Shown here: one piece after another, positions 47,120 to 61,967 of the stretch
Numbering within the stretch: the first letter of the stretch is position 1
Layout: each line of letters begins with the position of its first letter
From: Tahibacter aquaticus
GTDB lineage: Bacteria > Pseudomonadota > Gammaproteobacteria > Xanthomonadales > Rhodanobacteraceae
Length of the DNA stretch: 64,000 nt
Assembly: GCF_004363655.1 (NCBI RefSeq)
Contig: NZ_SNZH01000004.1
Span: 255,985-319,984, forward strand
Direction of reading: 5' to 3'
Program-made: the position numbers and the translations under genes
Notes under the pieces: model-generated
Database searches by the model: none
Seen by the model: only the letters and a program-made list of their open reading frames with translations
Told to the model about the DNA's origin: nothing

Positions 47120-49387
47120 TCAGTCGTCGTTGGCTTCGTCGCGGGGAACCACCTGCCCGGTAGAGAGAGGTGCGCAAGGCGTATTGTGTCTGCGCTTGCG
47201 ATGCCAGATCTGCCACTCGGCAGCCAGTGTGCGGATGCGTCTGCTGGAGGCGCGTTCCATAGTGCCGTAGGTTCCGACAGCCTTGGTTTCGTGGGCGCGT
47301 AACGCATAAGACCAGGGCCGCAACAGGCCGGAAATATGCGGACTGGTCTCTCTGACCAGGGGACCGGCCTGGACAACCAGCCAGCCTTCTTCGGGCGCCT
47401 TGTCGCGCAGGTGAATCCAGTACCTCGACGTCCGCCCTTGGGTCCTGCGTCGATAGATTTCCGCACCGGAGAGCTCGCGGTAGCTGGGCGGATTGGTGTC
47501 GACGCTGTCTTTCACGTCCGGCCACCTGTCGCCGATTATTTCCAGTGCCAGATCGAACTGGCGCGTATAGACGAGAGGCGAATTCGTCGCAACCGTGCGC
47601 ACCTTGGGCAAGGTAATGCCGAGCAATTCCTCCGCCCTGTCGTTGGCACGCACGATCTGCTCGCCGTCGATCATGGTCTCTATCACGCCGGTCTGCAGGC
47701 TGCGGAAAATCACCAGATCGCTGCGCACGGCTTCGTCTTCGCGCCGCTTGATGACGCCCATGATGGTGAAGGCGGCATAAGCAAAGCCGCTGATTCCCAG
47801 CACGATGGTCAACAGCGACTGGCGACTGCCCAGGCCGCGGCTTTTTGCCGGCGAAACCACCAGTGCCTGCATCTTGTTTTCGCTGACTTTGCCGATCGGC
47901 ACGATAAACGCTGCTTCGCCGGCAACGTCGATGCTGCGCACGGTCTGGGAGATTTCCGCAATGCCCGACTTGCTGGCGTCAATCGCGGCCGTCAGAGCCC
48001 TGCGGTCGTAGTACGGCGGTGCAATCGTCAAGTTGATCGAATCGACCTGGGTCGCGCCGTTGTGCATCGATACGGTGATCGGCTCGATCTGCAGAAAGCG
48101 GTTGGATACCAGGCGTTTGAGCAATTCCTTGTTCTGGGTAATGTTCAGCGTGAGGTCGGCGCATACGGCACCGAGAAACACGCTGGAGTCGCCTCGCCCT
48201 AGCCATAGCGGCCTGCATTCCGTGCTGACCAGACCGTTGCCGCCGAGGTCGAGATAGGCCCGGGTCCGCACCGGCGAACGCGAGCCTTCGACGATGAACG
48301 GTCGCATATAGGCCGCTGCAGACCACTGGCGGGTGCGCGGCAAATCCTTGATCGGATCGCCGTCGACGGTCCAGATGCGCAGGAAATTGTCGGGTGAAAT
48401 GAAATAGGCCTGGCGCAGCTCTGCCCCCTCCAGCAGCGACGTCACGGCGCTGTCGCCGGGTGGCCCAGTACCGTCGGCGCCGCCGACCTCGCCGTCAGCG
48501 GCGACTGCCGTTGTCTTGTCGCCGACGATGGCCATGGCGTTGACAATGGCGACATCGATGAGTTTGGCAACTCCGGCGATTTCCTTGGCGTCGCCTTCCC
48601 AGTCGGGTATCCAGTCGGCCAGGACTTTCGCTTCCTTGACGAGCCTATGATCCTGGATGCGAGCGGCGACGGCGAAATCGGTCAACTGTGCCGGGATCAG
48701 GCTGGCAGGGCTGCCAGGGCGGCGAAACACCTCGCAGGCGGCCTGACCAACACCGTGCGATTTGGCCACGGCAGGATTGGTCGAGTCGGGGCAGGGAATC
48801 ATGACCTCGCTATTTTTCTCTGTGCGCGCCGTGGCAATGCTCTGCAGCGCAGCCCGCATCCACGCACAACGCCGGCCCTCGTCGCCGGCGGCTCCAGCCC
48901 ACAAACCCAGCAGCAGATCGCGCACACCGCCGGTAAGCTTCTCGCCACAGTTGCCTGGTTCCTGCGATTGGTCATACGGCAGTGCATTGATATCGAGCGC
49001 CAGAGCGAACAAACGGTCTACGGTCTGCAGCAGCGCCTCTTTTTGCCGGCACGCGAGCAAGGGCGAACCGGACACACAATGCACGTCATCGACCTGGTAG
49101 TTGATCGTTCCGAGCAGTCCGGCCACCACGCCGGGATAAGGCAGCTCGCGCTCTTCCTGGCGCACACCGAAGGTCTTGGTGAAAAGCTCCTGGTCCTGCT
49201 GAATCGCCTGCGCCCGCTCGATCAGCAGCAGGCGCAGCGCCGCCGCAGCGACGAGTGCACAGGCAACCGCCAGTATCAGATAGAGCACGCCTTCGTTGCG
49301 GGCACGGCGGGAAGTCGACTGCAGGCGCTTGAGCAAACGCCGCCAAGACTCGGCAGATACCGCGCTTGAAAACGACAGGAAGCTCAT
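47120..49387 (-). CDS. Membrane sensor with dCache-like periplasmic domain and PAS domain, no output domain
   Basis: The protein has 755 residues. Transmembrane segments at about 33-55 and 523-546 flank a periplasmic region of about 465 residues. Its second half has Cache character (AYFISPDNFLRIWTVDGDPI, TRQWSAAAYMRPFIVEG, RTRAYLDLGGNGLVSTECRP, GAVCADLTL). The cytoplasmic part starts with a PAS domain (IFRSLQTGVIETMIDGEQIV, RANDRAEELLGIT). About 150 further residues contain no histidine kinase, GGDEF, EAL, methyl-accepting or HTH motif that I can see. It is probably a sensor that acts through a partner. The gene upstream of it on this strand (49490) and the one downstream (46114) are also uncharacterised membrane proteins. 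Confidence 0.7.
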   Translation of the reverse strand: MSFLSFSSAVSAESWRRLLKRLQSTSRRARNEGVLYLILAVACALVAAAALRLLLIERAQAIQQDQELFTKTFGVRQEERELPYPGVVAGLLGTINYQVDDVHCVSGSPLLACRQKEALLQTVDRLFALALDINALPYDQSQEPGNCGEKLTGGVRDLLLGLWAGAAGDEGRRCAWMRAALQSIATARTEKNSEVMIPCPDSTNPAVAKSHGVGQAACEVFRRPGSPASLIPAQLTDFAVAARIQDHRLVKEAKVLADWIPDWEGDAKEIAGVAKLIDVAIVNAMAIVGDKTTAVAADGEVGGADGTGPPGDSAVTSLLEGAELRQAYFISPDNFLRIWTVDGDPIKDLPRTRQWSAAAYMRPFIVEGSRSPVRTRAYLDLGGNGLVSTECRPLWLGRGDSSVFLGAVCADLTLNITQNKELLKRLVSNRFLQIEPITVSMHNGATQVDSINLTIAPPYYDRRALTAAIDASKSGIAEISQTVRSIDVAGEAAFIVPIGKVSENKMQALVVSPAKSRGLGSRQSLLTIVLGISGFAYAAFTIMGVIKRREDEAVRSDLVIFRSLQTGVIETMIDGEQIVRANDRAEELLGITLPKVRTVATNSPLVYTRQFDLALEIIGDRWPDVKDSVDTNPPSYRELSGAEIYRRRTQGRTSRYWIHLRDKAPEEGWLVVQAGPLVRETSPHISGLLRPWSYALRAHETKAVGTYGTMERASSRRIRTLAAEWQIWHRKRRHNTPCAPLSTGQVVPRDEANDD

Positions 49388-50227: not shown

Positions 50228-50509
50228 CAGTCAGGCCTGCGGCGAGGTTGGCGCCAACTGGCGAGGTGCATCGGTGTTTCCCCTGGAATTCACAGCCGCC
50301 CTGGTCGCGGCCATCGCCGTTGCCGGCACGGCGATCAGAAACCAGATTCGCCACCGCCGCAATCGGCCACAAGGCGTGGCCGGCCACCGGCGCAAGCCTG
50401 CCGCCCAGCCGGCAGACGGGTGCGCGCAGCGGCAATCGCCGCGCCGGCCGCTGCATCCAAAGCCGCCGCCGCTGCGTAAGGGTGGGACAGAATTCCTGGG
50501 CGAAACCCG

Positions 50510-51307
50510 ATGAAGCCAGCGCGCGCCGCCTCCACTGCCTACATCGCCCTGCTCTGCCTGGGCGCGACAGCGACGGCCTGCGCCGACGATTCCGCCACGG
50601 TGGAGCACTACGAAGGCCAGGCCTATGCCGCGCGCAGCGGCGACGCGGTCTATCGCGAATCGCACTGGCTTTATCGGCAGGACGGACAGCGCCATCGCCT
50701 GGTGCTTTATCGTTGCAGCGACGGCACACCGTTCGGGCGCAAGCAGATCAGCGAAGGCAACAGCGCACTGGCGCCAGATTTCGATTTCGTCGACGCCCGC
50801 GACGGCTATCGCGAAGGTGTGCGCAGCAGCGGCGAAGACCGCCAGGTGTATTGGCAGGCCGCCACCGGCAAGCCGGCCAGACAGGAAGCCGTGGCGCTTG
50901 GGCCGCAGGCGGTTGCCGATGCGGGCTTCGACGCGCTGGTGCGCCAGCGCTGGAATGAACTCGCTGCCGGCGAGGCCGTGCATGCCGCGTTTCTGGTGCC
51001 GGCCGACTTCAATTTCCTGCCCCTGGTCTTACGCAAGGACAACTCCGCCTCCGATGCGCAATTCAGTGCTTTCCGCCTGCGCCTGCAGGCCTGGTATGCC
51101 TTCGCCCTGCCCGAGTTCGTGCTGGTCTACCGCAACAGCGACCAGCGCCTGCAGCGTTTCCAGGGCATCAGCACCATCCGCGACAGCCAGGGCCGCCGCC
51201 AGAATGTACGCATCGAATTCGGCGAGGCGCAGAACCCCCTGCCGGCCAGCCGCGCCGACGTCGATGCGGCCGCGGCCGAACCCCTCACGAATCGTTGTCG
51301 TTCCTGA
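50510..51307 (+). CDS. Uncharacterised exported protein
   Basis: The protein has 265 residues. A signal peptide (about 1-25, IALLCLGATATACA) contains a Cys near its end, but the surrounding residues fit an ordinary cleavage site as well as a lipobox. The mature part is mixed alpha/beta with YRESHWLYRQDGQRHRLVLY and a recurring FDFVDARDGYREGV. No family is recognised; it resembles proteins annotated only as hypothetical in gammaproteobacteria. It precedes the ECF sigma gene by 160 bases and may or may not belong to that unit. Confidence 0.6.
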   Translation: MKPARAASTAYIALLCLGATATACADDSATVEHYEGQAYAARSGDAVYRESHWLYRQDGQRHRLVLYRCSDGTPFGRKQISEGNSALAPDFDFVDARDGYREGVRSSGEDRQVYWQAATGKPARQEAVALGPQAVADAGFDALVRQRWNELAAGEAVHAAFLVPADFNFLPLVLRKDNSASDAQFSAFRLRLQAWYAFALPEFVLVYRNSDQRLQRFQGISTIRDSQGRRQNVRIEFGEAQNPLPASRADVDAAAAEPLTNRCRS

Positions 51308-51467: not shown

Positions 51468-52037
51468 ATGCATGCATCGTCATTGGCTCAGGACTCGCTC
51501 GCCGAGCAGGTCGACCAGCTGTTGGTACGCGTGGCCCAGTACGACCAGGCTGCGTTCGAGGCGCTTTACCGCGCCACCGCCGGCCTGCTGCTGGGCATCT
51601 GCCTGAGAATATTGAAAGACCGTGCCGAAGCCGAGGATGTAGTACAGGAAGTCTTCGTCTCAGTCTGGGCCAAGGCAGCGCAGTTCGACCCGCAGCGCGC
51701 CAAGGGCACCACCTGGATAGGCTCCATCGCCCGCCATCGCGCCATCGATCGCGTGCGCTCGCTGCCCGCCGGTATCAGCGCACCGATCGAACTGGCCGAC
51801 ACGACGGCCGACACGGCACCGTCGCCGCCGAGCATTGTGGAAAACCGCGCCGAACGCGTACGCCTGGACGAATGCATGGAACAGCTCGACGGCCGCCGCC
51901 AGAGCCTGATCCGCACGGCGTTCTACGAAGGCGCGACCTACGATGAGCTGGCGCAGCGTTCGGGTTCGCCGCTGGGTTCGGTCAAAAGCTGGATCCGCCG
52001 CGGCTTGCTGCAACTGAAGGCGTGTCTGGAATCATGA
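51468..52037 (+). CDS. ECF-type RNA polymerase sigma factor
   Basis: The protein has 189 residues. Region sigma-2 contains FEALYRATAGLLLGICLRIL, DRAEAEDVVQEVFVSVW and TTWIGSIARHRAIDRVR. Region sigma-4 contains RQSLIRTAFYEGATYDELA and SPLGSVKSWIRRGLLQL. It directs RNA polymerase to stress promoters when released from its anti-sigma factor, whose ATG overlaps its stop (ATGA). The sequence type is close to the SigK/RskA pairing (ECF19-like). Upstream DNA holds no ECF promoter I can name with confidence. It probably controls the lipid-modification genes downstream. Confidence 0.92.
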   Translation: MHASSLAQDSLAEQVDQLLVRVAQYDQAAFEALYRATAGLLLGICLRILKDRAEAEDVVQEVFVSVWAKAAQFDPQRAKGTTWIGSIARHRAIDRVRSLPAGISAPIELADTTADTAPSPPSIVENRAERVRLDECMEQLDGRRQSLIRTAFYEGATYDELAQRSGSPLGSVKSWIRRGLLQLKACLES

Positions 52038-52789
52038 ATACCTCGCCGCCACGCCACGACGACGACACCCTTACCCCGCCCAGCGACGACGTCCGCGCCG
52101 GCGAATACGTACTCGGCGTGCTCGATGCCCCGGCCCGCCGCGCCGTGCAGGCACGCATCGCCAGCGATGCCGCCTTCGCCGGGCTGGTGGAAAACTGGGA
52201 ACGGCATTTCGCTGCCTGGCTGGGCCGGGTCGATGCGGCGACGCCGTCGCCGCATGTCTGGGCCGGCATCCGCCGCCGCCTGGGCTGGCCGGCGGTACAA
52301 AGCGTCAAACCCGGTCTCTGGAACAATGTGTCGTTCTGGCGCGGCGCCGCCGCGCTGGCTGCGGCGGCGGGCATCGCGGCAATTGCCTTCGGCCTGCGCC
52401 AGCCCACCCTGCCCGGGCCGGCACCGCCGCTGGCCAGCGAGGAAGCCGCGCCCAGGCCAGTCACGGTATTGGCCCGCGACGACGGCAGCACGGGCTGGAT
52501 CGCCTCCATCGATACGCGCAGCGGCAAGCTGGTCATCGTGCCGGTGCCTTCGGCCCTGGACAGCGGCGGCCGCGTGAACGAATTGTGGATTATTCCCGCC
52601 GGCGGTGCGCCGCTGTCGCTGGGCATGGTCTCGCACGACCGGACACATACCATCGCGGTGCCGCAAGCGCTGCGTGCGGCCATCGTGTCCGGCTCGCTGC
52701 TTGCCATCACGCTGGAACCGCAGGCCGGCATTCCGCATGCGCAGCCTTCGGGGCCGATCGTGGCCAAGGGACAGATACAGGCAATCTGA
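52034..52789 (+). CDS. RskA-like anti-sigma factor
   Basis: The protein has 251 residues. The N-terminal anti-sigma domain (AGEYVLGVLDAPARRAVQAR, about 22-90) lacks the His/Cys zinc-binding set of ChrR and ZAS anti-sigma factors. One transmembrane segment (about 103-120) and a periplasmic C-terminal RskA domain follow (TGWIASIDTRSGKLVIVPV, VNELWIIPAGGAPLSLG). It holds the ECF sigma factor inactive at the membrane, and release probably requires proteolysis. ATG 52034 overlaps the sigma stop; a GTG four codons earlier is an alternative. Confidence 0.9.
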   Translation: MNTSPPRHDDDTLTPPSDDVRAGEYVLGVLDAPARRAVQARIASDAAFAGLVENWERHFAAWLGRVDAATPSPHVWAGIRRRLGWPAVQSVKPGLWNNVSFWRGAAALAAAAGIAAIAFGLRQPTLPGPAPPLASEEAAPRPVTVLARDDGSTGWIASIDTRSGKLVIVPVPSALDSGGRVNELWIIPAGGAPLSLGMVSHDRTHTIAVPQALRAAIVSGSLLAITLEPQAGIPHAQPSGPIVAKGQIQAI

Positions 52790-52858
52790 GGAAGTACTGC
52801 ATCCATTCGTGGTGCGGGCCCGTATAGGCCCGCACCAACAGCGAAGAGGGAGCAATGC

Positions 52859-53809
<951 letters not shown>

Positions 53810-53811
53810 AC

Positions 53812-55125
53812 ATGCGCATCGCCGTGATCGGATCGGGTATCGCCGGACTTGCCAGCGCCTGGCTGCTGTCGCGCCGGCACGAGGTCGTGCTGCTGGAGGC
53901 CAACGACTATCTCGGCGGCCACACGCATACCCATGCGATACACCTGCGCGACCGCGACTACGCCGTCGACACGGGCTTTATTGTGCACAACCCCGCACAT
54001 TACCCTTTGCTGACGCGCCTGTTCGCCGAGCTGCGCGTGCCCACCCGGCCGACCACGATGAGCTTCTCCGTGCGCAACGACGGCAGCGGCCTGGAATACA
54101 ACGCCACATCGCTGGACGGCCTGTTCTGCCAGCGGCGCAACCTGGTGTCGCCGCGCTTCTGGGGCATGCTGCGCGACCTGCGCCGCTTCTACCGCGAGGC
54201 ACCGCAATTGCTGCAGCAGCCCGGGCCCGGCCCCAGCCTGGGCGACTATCTGCAGCAGCGTGGCCTGGGCGAGGCCTTCCGCGACGATCACCTGGTACCG
54301 ATGGCCTCGGCGCTGTGGTCTTCGCCGGCCGAGCGCATCCTGGCGTTTCCGGCGCGCTACCTGGTGCAGTTCATGGCCAATCACCAGATGCTGCAGATCG
54401 CCGGCCGGCCGCAATGGCGCGTAGTCGCCGGCGGTTCGCGCCGCTACATCGATGCATTGCAGCGGCTATGGCAGGTCGAGGTGCGGCTGAATGCCGGCGT
54501 CACCAGCCTGCGCCGGGACACGCAAGGCATAGAGCTGGTCAGCGGCGGGCAGCGCGAACGCTTCGACCAGGCCGTGCTGGCCTGCCATTCCGACCAGGCT
54601 CTGGCCCTGCTGGCCGACCCGGACGAGCGCGAGCGCGACATCCTCGGCGCCCTGCGCTACCAGCATAACGACACCGTGCTGCATACCGATGCGCGCCTGC
54701 TGCCGCAGCGGCGCAAGGCCTGGGCGGCGTGGAATGCCCATGTATCCGCCGCGCAGCCGGATCGCTGCACGGTCAGCTATTGCATGAACTTGCTGCAAGG
54801 CATCGATGCCCCCGAACCGCTGATCGTCACGCTCAACCGCAGCGAGGCGATAGCGCCGGAAAAAATCCTGCGCCGGCTCAGCTACCGGCATCCGGTCTAC
54901 GATCATGCCAGCGTCGCTGCCCAGGCGCGCAAGGCGGAAATCCAGGGCCGGCGCCGCACCTGGTTCGCTGGTGCCTACTGGGGCTGGGGCTTTCACGAAG
55001 ACGGCATGCGCAGCGCCGTGGAAGTGGCCAACGCGCTGGGCGTGGCCTGGCCGGGCACCGCGGCATCGCTGCCGCCCACCAGTGCAGCAGCGCATGCCGC
55101 CGCCAGCGTCGCGGAGACCACATGA
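53812..55125 (+). CDS. FAD-dependent amine-oxidase-like oxidoreductase (COG2907)
   Basis: The protein has 437 residues. An N-terminal dinucleotide-binding fold ([23 protein letters not shown] at 7-12; [14 protein letters not shown]) is followed by a flavin amine oxidase/phytoene-desaturase-like body with [11 protein letters not shown] and, near the end, [23 protein letters not shown]2907 proteins are regularly encoded with DUF1365 and CFA-like methyltransferases in proteobacteria, some under ECF sigma/ChrR control, and related FAD proteins desaturate or reduce methylated acyl chains. The exact reaction is unproven. Its stop overlaps the DUF1365 ATG (ATGA). Confidence 0.88.
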
Positions 55126-55919
55126 ACGCCGCGCTCGACGAGCCGCTGCGCTACAGCGCCGTCTACGAAGGCAGCGTGCGGCATCGCCGCTTCGGTGCGC
55201 GGCCGCATGCCTTCAGCTACCGCATGGGCCAGCTGTACCTGGACCTGGACGAACTCGACCGCGTCTTCCAGGGGCGCTGGTTCTGGTCGCTGGAACGCCG
55301 CAACCTGGCCGCCTTCCGCCGCACCGATTATCTCGGGCCGCCGCAGCAGCCGCTGGCCGAAGCCGTGCGCGACCGCGTCGCCGCCGTCACCGGCACGCGA
55401 CCACGCGGCCCGGTGCGCCTGCTTGCGCATCCGCGCTACGCCGGCTACGTGTTCAACCCGGTCAGTTTCTACTACGGCTTCGACGACGACGGCGAAACCC
55501 TGGCCTACGTGCTGGCGGAAATCACCAACACGCCCTGGGGCGAGCGCCACAGCTACGTCCTGCCGGTCGCCGAGGCACAGCAGCACGGCCGCGCCCTGTG
55601 CTGGAACTTCGCCAAGGCCTTCCACGTATCGCCGTTCCAGCCCATGCAGCAGGACTATCGCTGGCGCTTCACCCGCCCGCAAGACGATATTTTTATACAC
55701 ATGGATATTCTGCAGCGCGACGCGCGCGTGTTCGACGCCACCCTGCAGCTGCGCCGCCGCGCCCTCGACGGCAGCGCGCTGGCCAGGCTGCTGTGGCGCT
55801 ATCCGCTGATGACGGCCCAGGTGATCGGCGCCATCCATTGGCAGGCGCTGCGCCTGTGGCTCAAGCGCATTCCATTCCATCCGCATCCCAACTCGCTTCC
55901 GCCGGGGTCTTCTTCATGA
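55122..55919 (+). CDS. DUF1365 family protein
   Basis: The protein has 265 residues. It opens [20 protein letters not shown] and has [36 protein letters not shown] and [13 protein letters not shown], the hallmark segments of DUF1365. Its biochemical role is not established for this family; it is almost always next to COG2907 and CFA-type methyltransferases. Stop/start overlaps on both sides (ATGA at 55122 and 55916) make it part of one translational unit. Confidence 0.9.
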
Positions 55920-57193
55920 GCGAATACGCCCAATCACTGTCGGCCTATGCGCCGCGCTGGACTGCGCTGGACCGCCTGCTGCGCCGGCGCCTGCTGCAGC
56001 AAATGGCACAACTGCACGATGGCAGCGTGCGCATCGCCGATTCCCTGGGTACGACGAACCTTGGTACGGCGGCGGCCGACAGCGACACCATCGAAATCCG
56101 CGTCAGCGATGCCGGCTTCTACCGCGCCGTTGCCGCCAACGGCAGCGTCGGCGCCGGCGAGGCCTACATCAAGGGCCTGTGGCAATGCGACGATCTGGTC
56201 GGCCTGGTGCGCCTGCTGGTGCGCAACCGCGATCTGCTCGACGGCATGGAAACCGGCCTGGCCCGCCTCGGCGGCTGGGCGCTGCGCAGCTGGCACGCGC
56301 TGCGGCCGAATACGCGCTCCGGCGCGCGGCGCAATATCGCCGCGCACTACGACCTCGGCAACGCCTTCTTCGCCACCTTCCTGTCGGCGGATCTGATGTA
56401 TTCCTCGGCCCTGTTCGCGCCGGGTGACGATCTGGAGCGCGCTTCGCTGCGCAAGCTGGAACGCCTGTGCCAGAAGCTGCGCCTGCAGCCCGGCCAGCGC
56501 CTGCTGGAGATCGGCACGGGCTGGGGTGGTTTCGCGCTGCATGCCGCACGCCACTACGACTGCCATATCACCACGACGACGATTTCCCGCGAACAGCACG
56601 CACTGGCCACCGCGCGCGTCGCCGAAGCCGGCCTGCAGCACAAGGTCGATGTAGTGATGCAGGACTACCGCGACCTGCACGGCCAGTACGACAGGCTGGT
56701 GTCGGTGGAAATGGTCGAGGCCATCGGCGCGCTCAACCTGCCCGGCTATTTCGCCGCGCTGGGCCGCCTGCTCAAGCCCGATGGCCTGGCCGTGCTGCAG
56801 GCCATCACCATCGAAGACCACCGCTATGCGCAGGCCCTGCGCGTGGTGGATTTCATCAAGCGCTACGTATTCCCGGGCTCGTTCATTCCTTCGATCGCGG
56901 CATTGCTGAGCGCAAAGACGCACAGCAGCGACCTGGCCCTGGTGCATATGGAAGATTTCGGCCTGTCCTACGCCCAAACCCTGCAGTGCTGGCGCGAGCG
57001 CTTCCTGGCTCGGCGCGACGAAGTACGCGCGCAAGGCTTCGACGACGAATTCCTGCGCCTGTGGGAGTTCTACCTGGCCTATTGCGAAGGCGGTTTCCGC
57101 GAACGCTCCATCGGCGTGGCCCAGCTGGTACTGGCCAGGCCCGGCTGCCGCGACGCCGAGTTCGTGGTCGGCCTGGCCGGCGGGGCGGCCTGA
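55916..57193 (+). CDS. Cyclopropane-fatty-acyl-phospholipid synthase family methyltransferase
   Basis: This 425-residue CFA-family SAM-dependent enzyme acts on double bonds of membrane phospholipid acyl chains. Visible are [20 protein letters not shown] (substrate region), the SAM loop [28 protein letters not shown], the glutamate in [22 protein letters not shown] and [20 protein letters not shown]. The product may be a cyclopropane, methylene-branched or methylated unsaturated chain; CFA, UfaM-like and BfaB/Tms-like enzymes cannot be separated by eye. ATGA overlap with DUF1365, and DUF2878 follows directly at the stop codon. Confidence 0.92.
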
Positions 57194-57736
57194 ATGCGCT
57201 TCTGGGCCAATATCGCCGCTTACCAGCTGGTCTGGTTCTGCGCCGTGCTGGGCGCAGCACGCGGACAGGCCTGGCCCGGCATCGCAGCCGCGCTGTTGTT
57301 TTCCATCATTCACTTGTACACATCGCCATCGCGCCGCAGCGACGCGCGGCTGATCGGCTGCGCCCTGCTGGCCGGCCTGCTGATCGACGGCGGGCTCGGT
57401 GCCAGTGGCTGGGCACACTACGCAGCCGACCAGTCGGACGCATTCGCACCGTTGTGGATATTGGCCATCTGGCTCGCCTTCGCGCTGACCTTGAACCACT
57501 CGTCGGCCTGGCTGCAGGGCCGGCCACTGCTCGGCGTTGCGCTGGGTGTGTTCGGCGGCCCGCTGGCCTATCTCGCCGCCGAGCGCCTGCATGCCATCGC
57601 ATTTATTGCACCGGCCTGGCGTGGCCTGCTCTGGCTGGCGCTGGCCTGGGCCGTGGCAATGCCCTTGCTCGCCGCCGCCGCCGCACGCTGGCGCCACACA
57701 GCTGGCCGCACGCCGCTATCCGGAGCCTCCACATGA
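57194..57736 (+). CDS. DUF2878 membrane protein
   Basis: This 180-residue protein has five hydrophobic segments covering most of the sequence. It opens FWANIAAYQLVWFCAVLGAA and includes WLAFALTLNHSSAWL and FGGPLAYLAAERL, typical of DUF2878. Function is unknown; the family co-occurs with COG2907-CFA clusters. The ATG directly abuts the CFA stop, and its stop overlaps the DUF1295 start (ATGA). Confidence 0.88.
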   Translation: MRFWANIAAYQLVWFCAVLGAARGQAWPGIAAALLFSIIHLYTSPSRRSDARLIGCALLAGLLIDGGLGASGWAHYAADQSDAFAPLWILAIWLAFALTLNHSSAWLQGRPLLGVALGVFGGPLAYLAAERLHAIAFIAPAWRGLLWLALAWAVAMPLLAAAAARWRHTAGRTPLSGAST

Positions 57737-58536
57737 GCGCTACCGGTGCGCTACTGCTGGTGTGGCTGGCCGCAGCGCTGGCGCAGGGCGCCGGCTGGTA
57801 TTGGCAGCAGCGTCGGCGCAATGCCGGCATCGTCGACGTGATCTGGGCCGGCGGCGTCGGCGGCGCGGCCGTGCTGCTGGCCAGCCTCGGCGACGGTGCC
57901 CTCGCGCCACGGCTCACGCTGGCGGTACTCGGCGGTGTCTGGGGTCTGCGCCTGGCCTGGCATCTGTGGCAGCGCGTGCGCGGCGAAGACGAGGATGGCC
58001 GCTATGCCCAGCTGCGCCAGCGCTGGGGCGACGGTCCCTGGCTGTGGTTCGCGTTTTTCCAGTTCCAGGCTGCGCTGATCGTGCTGTTCTCGCTGCCGTT
58101 CCTGGCCGCCGCGCGCAACCCTCAGGACGGCATTACGCTGGCACTTGTCGGCGCTGCAACACTGTGGATTATTGCCGTAGTGGGCGAAAGTATCGCCGAC
58201 CGCCAGCTGCAGCAGTTTCGCGACAATCCGGCCAATCGCGGCCGCACCTGCCGCACCGGGCTATGGCGCTATTCGCGCCATCCGAACTATTTCTTCGAAT
58301 GGCTGCACTGGTTTGCCTACGTGCTGCTGGCCCTGGCTTCGCCCTGGTGGTGGCTGGCCTGGTCCGGGCCGCTGGTCATGTATGCCTTCCTGCGCTGGAT
58401 CAGCGGCATTCCGTTCACCGAGGCACAGGCCCTGCGCAGCCGCGGCGACGACTACCGCGACTACCAGCGCAGCACGTCAATGCTGTTTCCCTGGTTTACG
58501 AGGAGTTCCCATGAGCACCGCCAGCGTAACGACTGA
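57733..58536 (+). CDS. DUF1295 (steroid 5-alpha-reductase-like) membrane protein
   Basis: The protein has 267 residues and about six transmembrane segments. The C-terminal signature TGLWRYSRHPNYFFEWLHW belongs to the DUF1295/isoprenylcysteine methyltransferase-like steroid reductase superfamily. A reductase acting on lipid double bonds is possible, but the superfamily also includes methyltransferases. The gene overlaps DUF2878 by four bases, and its last 26 bases overlap the next methyltransferase, whose ribosome binding site lies inside it. Confidence 0.88.
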   Translation: MSATGALLLVWLAAALAQGAGWYWQQRRRNAGIVDVIWAGGVGGAAVLLASLGDGALAPRLTLAVLGGVWGLRLAWHLWQRVRGEDEDGRYAQLRQRWGDGPWLWFAFFQFQAALIVLFSLPFLAAARNPQDGITLALVGAATLWIIAVVGESIADRQLQQFRDNPANRGRTCRTGLWRYSRHPNYFFEWLHWFAYVLLALASPWWWLAWSGPLVMYAFLRWISGIPFTEAQALRSRGDDYRDYQRSTSMLFPWFTRSSHEHRQRND

Positions 58537-59596
58537 ATTGCCGGCCCAGCACGCCGCGCCCGGACTGCTGGGCCTGGCCGAACGCGGCTGGCTGCCCGAT
58601 GCGCTGCTGCGCTGGGGCATACGCCGGCAATGCGCGCAGCGCCTGCAGGACGAGCGCCGCGGCGGTATCGAGGCGGAAAGCGCGCGTTTCCAGGCCAATC
58701 TGCGCCTGCTGCGCGACAGTCCCGTCGCCGTGCATACCGACGCGGCCAACCGTCAGCACTACGAATTGCCGGCGGCGTTCTTCCAGCACTGCCTGGGGCC
58801 GCGGCTGAAATATTCCTCGGGCTATTTTCCCCAGGGTCACGAAAGCCTGGACGAGGGCGAGCAGCAGATGCTGGCCCTGTACGAACAACGTGCCCAGCTG
58901 GCGGATGGCCAGGCTATTCTCGAACTGGGCTGCGGCTGGGGTTCGCTCACCCTGTGGATGGCGCAGCGCTATCCGAACGCGCAGATCACCGCGGTATCCA
59001 ACTCGCATTCCCAGCGCCGCTTCATTCTGGAACGCTGCGCCGCACGCGGACTGGACAACGTGCGCGTGCTGACCCAGGACGCGAACCAGCTCGACCTTCC
59101 CGCCGACAGCTTCGATCGCTGCATCTCCATCGAGATGTTCGAACACATGCGCAACTACGGCCCGCTGCTGGCACGCATCAGCCGCAGCCTGCGCCGCGAC
59201 GGCCAGCTTTTTGTCCACATTTTCTGCCACCGCACAGTGTTGTACCCGTTCGAGACCGACGGCGAGGACAACTGGATGGGCCGGCATTTCTTCACCGGCG
59301 GGCTGATGCCTTCGGCCGATACGCTGGCCTGGTTCCAGCGCGATCTACAGCTGCAGCAGCGCTGGCTGCTGGACGGCCGCCACTACGCGCGCACGGCCAA
59401 CCTCTGGCTGGCCGAGCAGGACAAGCACAAGGCTGCGCTGATGCCGGTACTGCAATCCGCCTACGGTCCCGCCGCCGGACTGTGGTTCCAGCGCTGGCGC
59501 ATGTTCTGGATGGCCTGCGCCGAGCTGTTTGGCTATGCCGGCGGCAGCGAATGGGGCGTCGCGCACTACCGCTTCAGCCAGCGGGAAGCATCGTAG
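58511..59596 (+). CDS. CFA-superfamily methyltransferase resembling coclaurine N-methyltransferase
   Basis: The protein has 361 residues. The SAM loop ILELGCGWGSLTLWMAQRYP and ITAVSNSHSQRRFI, then EMFEHMRNYG, FVHIFCHRTVLYPFE, WMGRHFFTGGLMPSADTLA and DGRHYARTANLWL, follow the pattern of plant CNMT-like members of the CFA superfamily more closely than bacterial Cfa. It probably methylates a lipid or amine within this pathway. AGGAG lies five bases before the ATG. It is the last gene of the coupled cluster and overlaps DUF1295 by 26 bases. Confidence 0.88.
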   Translation: MSTASVTTELPAQHAAPGLLGLAERGWLPDALLRWGIRRQCAQRLQDERRGGIEAESARFQANLRLLRDSPVAVHTDAANRQHYELPAAFFQHCLGPRLKYSSGYFPQGHESLDEGEQQMLALYEQRAQLADGQAILELGCGWGSLTLWMAQRYPNAQITAVSNSHSQRRFILERCAARGLDNVRVLTQDANQLDLPADSFDRCISIEMFEHMRNYGPLLARISRSLRRDGQLFVHIFCHRTVLYPFETDGEDNWMGRHFFTGGLMPSADTLAWFQRDLQLQQRWLLDGRHYARTANLWLAEQDKHKAALMPVLQSAYGPAAGLWFQRWRMFWMACAELFGYAGGSEWGVAHYRFSQREAS

Positions 59597-59894
59597 AGCG
59601 CCGTCCCAGGTGCGGTGAGCGCAGGCGAACTGCACCGCACGGTGCGCACTAGACAGCGGTGCAAATCCTGCGGCGCAATTCCCTGCGCTCATCGCGCCCT
59701 ACCGGACACGCCACGCCTCATAGGGTGCGATGAGCGCAGCGAATTGCACCGGGCGGTGCCACTGCCGATCAGCTCGCAAAACCCTGCGGCATCTTGGCGC
59801 TGCCGCTGTCCGCCGAGTGGCGATGCCGCACCCGCATGTCCTCTACCCGGACCGAACTGCGCTTATCCGAGCACCCCTGTCTCGGAGCGTTGCC
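59597..59894. other. Intergenic region with repeats before the large beta-helix gene
   Basis: These 298 bases contain three related repeat copies (59609-59760) and no credible gene. The last 130 bases should hold the promoter of the beta-helix gene; no clear consensus boxes were seen. Confidence 0.65.
59609..59760. repeat. Cluster of three GTGCGATGAGCGCAGCGAA-type repeats, one inverted
   Basis: Copy one is at 59609-59645 (GGTGCGGTGAGCGCAGGC...), copy three at 59723-59760 (GGGTGCGATGAGCGCAGC...). Copy two at 59672-59702 is inverted (ends CTGCGCTCATCGCGCCCTAC). The copies share most of about 30 bases. Direct and inverted copies in one gap give a BIME-like structure able to form large hairpins. 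Sequences of this kind (TAGGGTGCG...GCGCAGCGAATTGCACC) are dispersed in many proteobacterial genomes. Confidence 0.75.
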
Positions 59895-61967
59895 ATGCGT
59901 GTGCGAATCCAATCTCTGCTGTTGTGCCTGATTCTGTTGCCCGCAACAGTCCAGGCTGGCGTCCTGCCGCCGACCTGGCCCGGGCCGGCGCCGTGCAATA
60001 CCACCTTGCAAGCCTGTATCGATGCGACGCCCGACAGCCAGACGATTTCGATCGAGACCGATGCGCCGATCGCGGAAAATATCAATCTGTACAATCGCAG
60101 CCTGGCCCTGGTTGCTGGCGAAGGACGCCGGCCCACCTTCGCCCCGGGCAACTGGATCTCGGTAAGCTCGGCGCCGATTCTCGGCAACCAGAACGTCACC
60201 CTGCGCGGACTGCGCCTGAGCAATGCCTACGTACGTGCCGTCTATCTGGGCACCGGCACGGCCACCTTCGATTTTTCCGGACTGGTGCTGGAACAGACCA
60301 GCAGCGCGCCGACCTATATCCGCGTCGAGGCGAATAGCGGCAATACCGTGCAGGCACGCCTGTACGACAACCGCATCCGCGGCGTGCCGGCGGCGCTGAA
60401 TGCGGGCTCGATCGAACTGGTCAATGCCGGTGGCACGCTCAACGCGAGCGCCTATTACAACCAGATCAGCAGCACTTCGGCCGTTGCGACCGACGGCGCC
60501 GGCATTTTCGTCGATGTCACCGGCGGCGGCGGTGGCACGGTAAAACTGCACGGCAATACGATACGCGGCGGCTATTTCCGCTCCGGCCTGTTCGTCTCCG
60601 AAGGCTTGTTCTCCAGCACCACCAGCAGCTTCAGCGCGCGTGTCTACAGCAATGTCGTGGTCTGCGCCGATCCCGCCGTCGCCGGCAGTTCGACCGGCCG
60701 CGGCATCGGCTTTACCGCGAACAACGGCAGCATCAATGCGCAGGCCGTCAACAACACCCTGACGCGCTGTTCCTCCGGCATCAGCGCCACGCAATGGTCC
60801 GGCGGCAGCGGCAGTGCGGCCGTCACCGGCCTGGTCAAGAACAACCTCGTCGTCGGCGAGCGTGGCCTGGACTTCACTCCGGCACTGACGCCTTCGCTGA
60901 GCAACGACTACAACCTGCTCAACGTCAACAGCAATATCGCCACGCCCGGCGCGAATACCATCACCAGCAACGCGCAGCTGGCCAGCCTGAGCGCACCGCG
61001 CCTGCGCTACAACTCGCCGGCCATCGACGCGGCGGACAACGCCACGCTGGCACTGGGACTGATCTTCAACAGCCTGCCCAGCAACGATGCCGATGGCCTG
61101 CGCCGCATCAAGGGCGGCAGCGGCGGCACCGCGGACATCGGCGCCTATGAGTTCGGCGACAGCGGCCTGCTGCATGTAGCGACCAGCGCGAACATCGTGG
61201 GCGGCTACATCACGCGCATCGACAACCCCGTGCTGGACAACCGCTCCGGCGCCAATCCCATCGCCACGCCGAACTGGCACGGCGGCAGCAGTGGCGGCAC
61301 GTCCAACGACAACTACCTGGGAATCTACTATTTCAGCGGCAACTGGCTGCTGTTCAACGAAGACCAGACGACGCCGATGCCGCTGCGTGCCGCGTTCAAC
61401 ACCTTCGTGCCCGCGGCCGGCAGCGGCTCGTTCCGCCATGTCAGCAGCGCCGCCAACACTATCGGCTTCGGCACACGCATCGACGACAGCACGGTCAACG
61501 GCCTGCCCGAACGCATCGTCCTCGCCACGCAGAACTGGAGCGCCGGCAGCAATGTATACAACGCACATCCCATCGGCCTGAGCTACGTACCGGCCGGCAG
61601 CTCCGGCAACTGGCATATCGTCAACATCGACCGGGCCGGCGGCGGCGCCATGCCGGTCAATGCGGGCTTCAACGTCTACGCCCAGGAAGCCAGTCCCAAC
61701 GCATTCCGCGTCAGCGCCTATGCGGGCGGCAGCAGCATCGCGCTCGATCATCCCCTGCTCAACGACACCGCCTGCGCCCGCGTACAGGTCACACGACTGG
61801 ACACCGGCAACAGCGTGCCGCGCAACTTTGACGTCTACTACGGCAGCGGCCGCTGGCGCATCTTCAGCTATTCCGCCCTGGCCAGTGGCACGCAGTTCAA
61901 TGTGCTGGTAGACCCGGCCCAGGTGTTCGAGTGTACCGACCGGATATTTGCCAATGGCTACGAGTGA
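59895..61967 (+). CDS. Large secreted beta-helix protein with repeated C-terminal domain
   Basis: The protein has 690 residues. A signal peptide (1-21, ending VQA) precedes a right-handed beta-helix of about 400 residues with a Ser/Thr/Asn/Gly-rich pattern (LNASAYYNQISST, VKNNLVVGERGLDFTP) and the closing SGGTADIGAYEFGDSG typical of choice-of-anchor/CSLREA proteins. Two or more repeats of a smaller beta domain follow, each with a VSSAANTIGFGTRIDD- or AGGSSIALDHPLLND-like core and an aromatic stretch (NYLGIYYFSGNWLLFNED; NFDVYYGSGRWRIFSYS). It ends DRIFANGYE. Probably an extracellular or surface protein. The start at 59895 was chosen from the signal peptide. Confidence 0.8.
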   Translation: MRVRIQSLLLCLILLPATVQAGVLPPTWPGPAPCNTTLQACIDATPDSQTISIETDAPIAENINLYNRSLALVAGEGRRPTFAPGNWISVSSAPILGNQNVTLRGLRLSNAYVRAVYLGTGTATFDFSGLVLEQTSSAPTYIRVEANSGNTVQARLYDNRIRGVPAALNAGSIELVNAGGTLNASAYYNQISSTSAVATDGAGIFVDVTGGGGGTVKLHGNTIRGGYFRSGLFVSEGLFSSTTSSFSARVYSNVVVCADPAVAGSSTGRGIGFTANNGSINAQAVNNTLTRCSSGISATQWSGGSGSAAVTGLVKNNLVVGERGLDFTPALTPSLSNDYNLLNVNSNIATPGANTITSNAQLASLSAPRLRYNSPAIDAADNATLALGLIFNSLPSNDADGLRRIKGGSGGTADIGAYEFGDSGLLHVATSANIVGGYITRIDNPVLDNRSGANPIATPNWHGGSSGGTSNDNYLGIYYFSGNWLLFNEDQTTPMPLRAAFNTFVPAAGSGSFRHVSSAANTIGFGTRIDDSTVNGLPERIVLATQNWSAGSNVYNAHPIGLSYVPAGSSGNWHIVNIDRAGGGAMPVNAGFNVYAQEASPNAFRVSAYAGGSSIALDHPLLNDTACARVQVTRLDTGNSVPRNFDVYYGSGRWRIFSYSALASGTQFNVLVDPAQVFECTDRIFANGYE

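What the first reader, a model, noticed from the sequence alone, without database searches (positions are those of the whole stretch)
51468..59596. ECF-sigma-controlled cluster for oxidation and methylation of membrane acyl chains
Seen: an ECF sigma/anti-sigma pair, a di-iron desaturase, a COG2907 FAD oxidoreductase, DUF1365, a CFA synthase, DUF2878, DUF1295 and a second CFA-superfamily methyltransferase, in one direction and mostly with overlapping stop/start codons. Known: COG2907-DUF1365-CFA-type genes belong to sigmaE-ChrR singlet-oxygen regulons in several proteobacteria, and CFA-like methylase plus desaturase/oxygenase enzymes make furan fatty acids in Rhodobacter and relatives; FAD protein plus CFA methyltransferase pairs make 10-methyl branched fatty acids in others. 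Inference: this cluster makes a methylated, possibly furan or branched, phospholipid acyl chain in response to membrane or oxidative stress. DUF1365, DUF2878 and DUF1295 have no assigned step.
Basis: partly seen in the sequence, partly recalled or inferred. Interest (0 to 1): 0.75.

Follow-up and report, generated by a model that had tools for sequence, protein, structure and literature searches.

The report
Furan fatty acid operon, SigK-type control
This gene cluster very probably lets a bacterium turn membrane fats into antioxidant furan fatty acids when a SigK/RskA-type membrane stress sensor is triggered, which gives a testable idea of what that poorly understood sensor is for.

Summary
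The cluster is real and at the stated coordinates. FAD protein, DUF1365 and first methyltransferase correspond to UfaD, UfaO and UfaM of bacterial furan fatty acid (FuFA) synthesis; the last methyltransferase belongs to the family of FufM, which makes dimethyl-FuFA. The first methyltransferase has residues E/A/Q found in all 93 relatives examined, not the G/H/H of two true cyclopropane synthases compared. A desaturase in front, DUF1295 and DUF2878 belong to the same operon (full order in 23 of 35 related loci). DUF1295 accompanies the pathway in 3 of 3 actinobacterial records inspected and resembles NADPH sterol/steroid reductases. The sigma/anti-sigma pair is SigK/RskA-like, not the sigmaE-ChrR of known FuFA operons. 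An exact promoter, GCATCC-N16-CGTA, precedes the gene upstream of the sigma factor and the desaturase (2 found in the window, 0.13 expected), the desaturase in 15 of 29 related loci, and a DUF4331 gene elsewhere. A Streptomyces plasmid carries SigK-RskA divergent from the same four lipid genes, and a SigK-RskA-like pair is already reported to be induced by singlet oxygen in Rhodobacter capsulatus. Furan reading supported, branched-chain reading not. New variant of a known kind; product and regulation are untested at the bench.

The parts
50453..50478 (+). ECF-type promoter GCATCC-N16-CGTA, 31 bases before the next gene
   Evidence: exact match; 2 in window, 0.13 expected
50510..51307 (+). 265-aa protein of unknown family, probable upstream member of the sigma-factor operon
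   Evidence: no Pfam or NCBIfam match; homologues 35-47% identical beside the same operon in L045, L049, L058
51468..52037 (+). ECF sigma factor, SigK-like; C136 and C186 align with SigK C133 and C183
   Evidence: Pfam; best solved structure 4nqw SigK E 6.6e-30, alignment
52034..52789 (+). RskA-type anti-sigma factor
   Evidence: PF10099 RskA_C 65 bits; two weak hydrophobic segments by a crude scan
52799..52824 (+). ECF-type promoter GCATCC-N16-CGTA, 34 bases before the desaturase start
52859..53809 (+). acyl-CoA desaturase (SCD1-type)
   Evidence: PF00487; PDB 4ymk E 5.2e-28; 14 histidines in 30 of 30 aligned sequences
53812..55125 (+). UfaD-like FAD acyl desaturase (amine-oxidase type)
   Evidence: PF01593, PF13450; 44% identical over 428 aa to the UfaD orthologue of Rhodopseudomonas sp. 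B29
55122..55919 (+). UfaO-like, DUF1365, furan-forming oxygenase
   Evidence: PF07103 286 bits; 38% identical over 240 aa to Rhodopseudomonas sp. B29
55916..57193 (+). UfaM-like SAM methyltransferase
   Evidence: PF02353; E/A/Q at Cfa G236/H240/H266; 43% identical over 368 aa to Rhodopseudomonas sp. B29
57194..57736 (+). DUF2878 protein with about four hydrophobic segments, role unknown
   Evidence: PF11086; 28 of 35 related loci have a match by the script's thresholds, in two (L050, L057) on the other strand
57733..58536 (+). DUF1295 membrane protein, NADPH sterol/steroid reductase-like
   Evidence: PF06966; 7c83 E 3.5e-6; model pLDDT 95.9; Foldseek 4quv, 7bw1, 7c83 prob 1.00
58511..59596 (+). 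FufM-like SAM methyltransferase (plant coclaurine N-methyltransferase family)
   Evidence: 6gkv E 7.9e-70; 46% identical over 338 aa to the member of Rhodopseudomonas sp. B29

Best explanation
The cluster is a stress-induced operon that makes mono- and then dimethyl furan fatty acids on existing phospholipids. Proposed order: (1) the RskA-like membrane anti-sigma holds the SigK-like sigma; membrane or photo-oxidative stress releases it (inferred). (2) The sigma transcribes from GCATCC-N16-CGTA before the unknown gene-sigma-anti-sigma row, before the desaturase-to-methyltransferase operon and before a DUF4331 gene elsewhere (inferred from sequence, strong). (3) The desaturase supplies or places the double bond (inferred). 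(4) The UfaM-like enzyme methylates and shifts the double bond, the UfaD-like enzyme makes the conjugated diene, UfaO-like DUF1365 inserts O2-derived oxygen to give the furan, the FufM-like enzyme adds the second methyl (by homology to enzymes proven in R. sphaeroides and R. palustris). (5) DUF1295 is an NADPH-dependent membrane C=C reductase; I suggest that it acts on the furan lipid or its oxidised ene-dione form (inference). DUF2878 is a membrane accessory (inference).
For: UfaD/UfaO/UfaM identities, and order equal to that of Rhodopseudomonas sp. B29, a member of a genus with proven enzymes. UfaM-type residues in 93 of 93 MT1 sequences and 3 of 3 actinobacterial ones, absent from the genome's own true Cfa and E. 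coli Cfa. MT2 is sharply bounded: 33 of 398 Pseudomonadota genomes at E <= 1.9e-112, next match 2.3e-43; 30 of these 33 have DUF1365 against 121 of 365 others, Fisher p 6e-11, not corrected for kinship. DUF1295 beside MT2 in 65 of the 80 best named loci, 18 of 20 in one family, 15 of 26 loci outside the host's order (3 genomes shared). Promoter. SigK-RskA divergent from FAD-DUF1365-UfaM-DUF1295 in Streptomyces sp. NBC_00069, with CAATCC-N16-CGAA facing both ways; a SigK-RskA-like pair about 0.6 kb from FAD-DUF1365 in Caulobacter vibrioides OR37, with GCGTCC-N16-CGTA before the FAD gene. A SigK-RskA-like pair is induced by singlet oxygen in R. capsulatus (PMC7074977).
Against: No lipid, transcript or phenotype data exist for this genome in what I saw. 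No proven Ufa/Fuf sequence was itself compared; a same-genus orthologue stood in. Only two true Cfa sequences were set against the UfaM residues. 3 of 33 MT2 genomes lack DUF1365 (G094, G420, G439). The motif also precedes ECF genes of ECF-ChrR pairs in L045 and L046, so it does not by itself name the sigma; 14 of 29 desaturase loci lack the exact motif, among them G006 and G007 of the same genus (near forms there), and G007 has no sigma pair beside the operon. In eight genomes of the genus the motif occurs 106 times against 19 for the reversed pattern, so the reversed pattern understates chance; in the host 8 of 12 sites lie inside genes. R. capsulatus has the SigK-RskA-like pair but no homologue of UfaD or UfaO. 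Oxidation is reported to tighten the SigK-RskA complex of M. tuberculosis (PMC7509140).
Confidence: 0.72

Rival explanations
1. Monomethyl furan fatty acids only: UfaD, UfaO and UfaM work as stated, but the last methyltransferase acts on another lipid or an amine, like its plant N-methyltransferase relatives.
For: Closest solved structures are plant N-methyltransferases; three genomes hold the family without DUF1365.
Against: FufM is in this family by way of Arabidopsis AT4G33110, 37.87% identical to FufM (PMC10940516); at least two ufa genes lie in the fetched stretch in 56 of 80 named loci.
Confidence: 0.15
2. 10-methyl branched fatty acids made by a flavoprotein plus methyltransferase (BfaA/BfaB, TmsAB type).
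For: A flavoprotein next to a CFA-type methyltransferase; M. tuberculosis UfaA1 was reported to make tuberculostearic acid in vitro (PMC5660069).
Against: The FAD domains over cut-off here are of the amine-oxidase, NAD_binding_8 and DAO types; that BfaA has another FAD domain (FAD_binding_4) is recalled. DUF1365/UfaO has no place in that route.
Confidence: 0.04
3. An ordinary cyclopropane fatty acid operon.
For: MT1 carries the CMAS domain. Overexpressed Halomonas UfaM was accompanied by cyclic fatty acids in E. coli, which has its own Cfa (PMC12089945).
Against: G236E, H240A, H266Q in MT1; a separate true Cfa with all these residues sits elsewhere in the genome; H266 is a ligand of the catalytic bicarbonate (PMC11387697).
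Confidence: 0.03
4. The pathway is as stated but the neighbouring sigma factor controls only itself and other genes.
For: The motif also precedes ECF genes of ECF-ChrR pairs in other genomes, and G007 has the operon without the pair beside it.
Against: No ECF-linked ChrR was found in this genome: two Cupin_7 matches below the cut-off, no ChrR similarity and only marginal ECF similarity (E 0.08 or worse) beside them; the same promoter stands before the sigma row and the lipid operon.
Confidence: 0.06

Closest known systems
UfaM/UfaD/UfaO and FufM furan fatty acid pathway, Rhodobacter sphaeroides and Rhodopseudomonas palustris (PMC7380195)
   Same: Same four enzyme families; ufaD-ufaO-ufaM order as in Rhodopseudomonas
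   Different: All four in one operon here, with an acyl desaturase, DUF1295 and DUF2878; SigK/RskA-type instead of sigmaE-ChrR control
Halomonas sp. YLGW01 ufaM-ufaD-ufaO (PMC12089945, passages)
   Same: Three consecutive ufa genes; its UfaM made 11-methyloctadec-12-enoate in E. coli
   Different: No FufM, DUF1295 or regulator described in the passages
R. capsulatus 'rpoE-chrR', SigK/RskA-like (PMC7074977, passages and first part of Discussion)
   Same: SigK/RskA-like pair, induced by singlet oxygen (log2 3.7 and 3.4)
   Different: No UfaD/UfaO homologue in that species; near the photosynthesis cluster
Mycobacterial SigK locus (Mb0457c, Mb0456c, UfaA1, Mb0453c, SigK, RskA; PMC10540498)
   Same: SigK-RskA with a CFA-type methyltransferase and three 'unknown' proteins; recalled, not tested, to be amine oxidase, DUF1365 and DUF1295; Streptomyces sp. 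NBC_00069 shows this set
   Different: No FufM-like gene, desaturase or DUF2878 described there; MPB70/83 in the regulon
Aeromonas salmonicida NTF2-SDR-FAD-DUF1365-cfa-DUF2878 genes (PMC10012899)
   Same: FAD-DUF1365-CFA-DUF2878 core; a ChrR gene falls with it under riboflavin
   Different: No FufM, DUF1295 or desaturase listed; ChrR-type regulator
Chlamydomonas SAK1-dependent singlet-oxygen genes CFA1, CFA2/CPLD27, DUF1365, DUF1295 (PMC4067076)
   Same: The same families induced together by singlet oxygen
   Different: Eukaryote, separate genes, other regulator

Membership tests
Furan fatty acid pathway (UfaDOM) | Amine-oxidase-type UfaD, DUF1365 UfaO and CFA-type UfaM together | tested here: met
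Furan fatty acid pathway (UfaDOM) | Makes furan fatty acid | not testable with these tools
   needs FAME GC-MS
UfaM | Residues that set UfaM-type sequences apart from Cfa (E236, A240, Q266, E. coli numbering; defined here) | tested here: met
   window MT1 and 93 of 93 relatives, against two Cfa sequences
FufM | Same family as FufM, distinct from Cfa/UfaM | tested here: met
   46% to the Rhodopseudomonas sp. B29 member; family gap; the R. palustris protein itself not compared
FufM | Converts 9M5- to 9D5-FuFA | not testable with these tools
   needs enzyme assay
SigK-RskA (ECF18/19) | Sigma closest to SigK, with its two cysteines | tested here: met
   (solved structures only); cysteines also in L041, L049, L038, L244
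SigK-RskA (ECF18/19) | Anti-sigma with RskA_C domain | tested here: met
SigK-RskA (ECF18/19) | Placement in an ECF18/19 tree | not tested
   no reference set used
sigmaE-ChrR (ECF11) | Zinc/cupin ChrR anti-sigma beside the sigma gene | tested here: not met
   none over cut-off in the genome
Cyclopropane fatty acid synthase | Bicarbonate ligands E239, H266, Y317 | tested here: not met
   H266 is Q; E239 and Y317 kept
BfaA/BfaB | BfaA-type FAD oxidoreductase | tested here: inconclusive
   the FAD domains found are of the amine-oxidase type, but no BfaA sequence was compared
Steroid 5-alpha-reductase/sterol reductase fold (DUF1295) | Fold and NY..E motif of NADPH reductases | tested here: inconclusive
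   sequence E 3.5e-6; Foldseek prob 1.00, E 1e-3 to 3e-2, TM about 0.5; a methyltransferase, 4a2n, also fits 81 columns at prob 0.99, E 0.74

The most novel reading that the evidence does not exclude
SigK/RskA is, across Pseudomonadota and Actinomycetota, a photo-oxidative membrane stress sensor with furan fatty acid synthesis as an old main output: the FAD-DUF1365-UfaM(-DUF1295) module sits beside SigK-RskA, beside the singlet-oxygen regulator ChrR, or beside a B12-binding MerR of the light-sensor type. DUF1295 would be the recycling enzyme, an NADPH reductase that reduces the ene-dione left after a furan lipid has caught singlet oxygen, so that the 1,4-dione can close to the furan again. The 'unknown' genes of the mycobacterial SigK locus would be the same pathway.
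Probability: 0.25. Interest if true: 0.8.

Novelty: new variant of a known kind. Interest (0 to 1): 0.6.

Why it matters
The signal of SigK and the role of its regulon in mycobacteria are stated in print to be unknown or little known (PMC7509140; PMC5547695). Finding SigK-RskA beside a furan fatty acid gene set in two phyla, with one promoter layout, turns that question into a lipid test; the reported singlet-oxygen induction of such a pair in R. capsulatus points the same way. It also gives a one-operon candidate for dimethyl-FuFA, suggests that SigK-RskA and ChrR are interchangeable inputs to one pathway, and marks DUF1295 as a widely conserved, unassigned component of it.

Tried and rejected
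BfaA/BfaB-type and plain cyclopropane readings were weighed and set aside. That the ECF pair is sigmaE-ChrR was tested and dropped. That the desaturase is the genome's only source of double bonds was dropped: 5 desaturases including this one, and one FabA over the cut-off. An ECF11-like TGATCC...TA pattern (form recalled) was not found within 400 bases upstream of any of 29 desaturases. No PDB chain matched the DUF1365 profile by sequence up to E 1; its model (pLDDT 92.9) had no match at E <= 0.001, only weak lipocalin/nitrobindin-like barrels with query TM-scores of about 0.3 or less, so its oxygen chemistry stays unexplained. Upstream genes of other loci gave no single shared regulator. A first reading of residue numbers was one off and was repeated with the right shift. 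Rows dropped: family sets used only matches covering at least 70% or 80% of the query, without stops; A1 holds 30 of 34 and A2 30 of 35 sequences at hand.
Full report
What is there. Pfam assigns ECF sigma, RskA_C anti-sigma, FA_desaturase, an Amino_oxidase/NAD_binding_8 flavoprotein, DUF1365, a CMAS methyltransferase (MT1), DUF2878, DUF1295 and a second, more distant CMAS match (MT2). It is of another class than Ancylobacter: a genome listed only as same phylum (G510) has an MT2 identical to that of Ancylobacter defluvii.

Known chemistry. In PMC7380195 (abstract, passages and section 9 seen) the FAD protein UfaD, the DUF1365 protein UfaO and the CFA-like UfaM make monomethyl furan fatty acid on phospholipids, and FufM adds a second methyl. 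So DUF1365 does have a step. PMC10940516 (passages) reports Arabidopsis AT4G33110 as 37.87% identical to FufM; MT2's closest solved structures are plant N-methyltransferases, 6gkv E 7.9e-70, far ahead of E. coli Cfa at 2.9e-27. PMC12089945 (passages) reports that Halomonas UfaM makes 11-methyloctadec-12-enoate in E. coli.

Named comparison. A scan of named genomes with an MT2 alignment returned the best 80 of 588 loci, among them Rhodopseudomonas sp. B29 (L231), of the genus in which FufM was proven. Its DUF1365 locus has FAD-DUF1365-MT1 in the order of RPA2571-2570-2569. Window identities to this strain: FAD 44% over 428 aa, DUF1365 38% over 240, MT1 43% over 368, MT2 46% over 338, DUF1295 40% over 264. 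The R. palustris proteins themselves were not compared.

Which methyltransferase. PMC11387697 (passages) gives E239, H266 and Y317 as bicarbonate ligands of E. coli Cfa. In the window's MT1, in 93 of 93 related MT1 and in three actinobacterial ones, G236, H240 and H266 are E, A and Q, while E239 and Y317 stay; the genome's own Cfa on contig C21 keeps G, H, H like E. coli Cfa. MT1 is therefore UfaM-type; only these two Cfa sequences were compared. That the difference sets the fate of the carbocation is inference.

Conservation of the operon. Of 61 genomes searched around the host, 36 have DUF1365; the 35 loci outside the window were read at up to 20 kb. Desaturase-FAD-DUF1365-MT1 is kept on one strand in 29 of 35, the full row to DUF1295-MT2 in 23 of 35. 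Two loci (L050, L057) have MT2-DUF1295-FAD-DUF1365-MT1 without desaturase; L066 and L070 show no MT2 in the fetched stretch; L055 is cut by a contig end. In 398 genomes spread over the phylum, MT2 proper occurs in 33, with a wide gap to ordinary Cfa matches, and DUF1365 in 151; 30 of the 33 have both (Fisher p 6e-11, without correction for kinship). G094, G420 and G439 have MT2 without DUF1365.

DUF1295. It lies next to MT2 in 65 of 80 named loci, in 18 of 20 of one family and in 15 of 26 loci outside the host's order (one with DUF2878 between; three of these genomes are also). In 3 of 3 actinobacterial plasmid records inspected it follows UfaM: Streptomyces sp. NBC_00069 and NBC_00158 directly, Rhodococcus erythropolis KB1 after another methyltransferase-like stretch. 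No FufM was annotated there. Chlamydomonas induces CFA1, CFA2/CPLD27, DUF1365 and DUF1295 in a SAK1-dependent way under singlet oxygen (PMC4067076, passages). The profile matches the steroid 5-alpha-reductase PbSRD5A at E 3.5e-6, sharing an Asp and the NY..E...W stretch; the model (pLDDT 95.9) is closest to sterol and steroid reductases 4quv, 7bw1 and 7c83, each probability 1.00 with E 1e-3 to 3e-2 and TM about 0.5, while the methyltransferase 4a2n fits only 81 columns. A reductase is thus more likely than an ICMT-type methyltransferase. Reduction of the ene-dione left by singlet oxygen, to allow ring closure again, is my proposal; the searches listed no paper holding both 'DUF1295' and 'furan fatty acid' among the rows shown.

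Regulator. Among solved structures the sigma is nearest to M. tuberculosis SigK (4nqw, E 6.6e-30), then R. sphaeroides RpoE (2q1z, E 3.4e-22); both SigK cysteines, 133 and 183, align with C136 and C186 and are kept in the four relatives aligned. The partner carries RskA_C. Known furan genes belong to the sigmaE-ChrR core regulon (PMC6852236, passages).

Promoter. GCATCC-N16-CGTA occurs twice in the window, before 50510 and before the desaturase at 52859; 0.13 expected, none of 100 shuffles had two. Genome-wide there are 12 sites against 4 for the reversed pattern: 8 inside called genes, 2 here and 2 before a DUF4331 gene, of which the nearer lies in the longest open frame but ahead of the likely start and the DUF4331 domain. 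In eight genomes of the genus there are 106 sites against 19 reversed, so most sites are not promoters and the reversed pattern understates chance. The one DUF4331 gene each of G000, G001 and G007 and the best one of G004 have the exact motif about 120-200 bases upstream of the matched stretch; three weaker G004 matches have none there, and G003's is cut by a contig end. Upstream of the desaturase, 15 of 29 loci have the exact motif with spacer 16, one more with spacer 17. All 35 loci together hold 30 exact sites on both strands, none reversed; of the 15 other sites, 6 lie ahead of a sigma gene or of the gene of unknown family (L041, L045 twice, L046, L048, L049; judged by eye). The remaining 9 as background would give 0.08 in the searched upstream stretches.

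Regulator swap. ChrR-like proteins occur in 6 of 35 order loci, 10 of 40 phylum stretches and 34 of 80 named loci; RskA-like ones in 5 of 35, 1 of 40 and 10 of 80 (within the fetched stretch, not always adjacent; L206 has both). Cupin_7 confirms ChrR in L045 and L046, RskA_C confirms L038, L041 and L244. In L045 and L046 the motif lies ahead of the sigma domain of the ECF-ChrR pair, within the longest open frame, so one promoter layout seems to serve both sensors. Within the genus the SigK-RskA pair lies upstream in L041, L049 and L058 but not in L054. In this genome no ChrR beside an ECF gene was found. In Streptomyces sp. NBC_00069 SigK-RskA is divergent from FAD-DUF1365-UfaM-DUF1295, with CAATCC-N16-CGAA facing each way; in NBC_00158 a MerR protein with B12-binding domains lies beside the same genes. 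For mycobacteria, PMC10540498 (passages) lists the SigK locus as two unknown proteins, UfaA1, another unknown, SigK and RskA; that the unknowns are amine oxidase, DUF1365 and DUF1295 is recalled.

Signal. PMC7074977 (passages and first part of the Discussion) reports that the 'rpoE-chrR' pair of R. capsulatus is closer to SigK-RskA than to R. sphaeroides RpoE-ChrR and rises under singlet oxygen (log2 3.7 and 3.4); it also lists no homologue of RSP_1090 or RSP_1091 there, so that pair works without UfaO and UfaD. Light raised the putative SigK targets mpk83 and mpk70 in M. kansasii, though not dipZ (PMC9861118, passages), and UV lowered RskA in an actinobacterium (PMC8965627, passages). Against a simple oxidation switch, oxidising conditions stabilise SigK-RskA (PMC7509140, passages). 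The signal here is therefore a proposal with published support in a related pair.

Verdict. The cluster is a new variant of the furan fatty acid operon: complete to the dimethyl step, preceded by its own desaturase and tied to a SigK/RskA-type pair. Of the papers listed by the searches for SigK/RskA with furan fatty acid, DUF1365 or mycobacterial gene names, those I looked into did not state this link in the passages seen; several listed ones were not opened, and most subscription papers are not held.

Noticed in passing
window 52809-52834: A 10-base perfect inverted repeat (GGTGCGGGCC / GGCCCGCACC, loop CGTATA) overlaps the spacer and -10 of the desaturase promoter, without a run of T after it; terminator of the sigma row or operator, unknown (seen by eye).
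   Followed up: no
G000:C6:25037-28210 (L257): A DUF4331 gene followed by a TPR-repeat gene, with two copies of the ECF promoter upstream; probable second target of the same sigma factor.
   Followed up: partly
L309:6706-12527 (Streptomyces sp. NBC_00158): FAD-DUF1365-UfaM-DUF1295 genes beside a MerR regulator with B12-binding domains, the layout of light sensors of the CarH/LitR kind (name recalled).
   Followed up: partly
L307:10033-11344 (Rhodococcus erythropolis plasmid): Stretch between UfaM and DUF1295 without a listed gene (the plasmid gene table is incomplete), with methyltransferase similarity in two pieces; perhaps a broken second methyltransferase gene. Left as it is.
   Followed up: no
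window 47120-49387, minus strand: 755-aa protein with a PAS match below the cut-off, upstream of the cluster, role unknown.
   Followed up: no
window 59730-61967: Protein with three DUF7452 stretches directly after the operon, probably unrelated.
   Followed up: no
G094, G420, G439: FufM-like methyltransferase with no DUF1365 found in the genome; a hint of another substrate in that genus.
   Followed up: no
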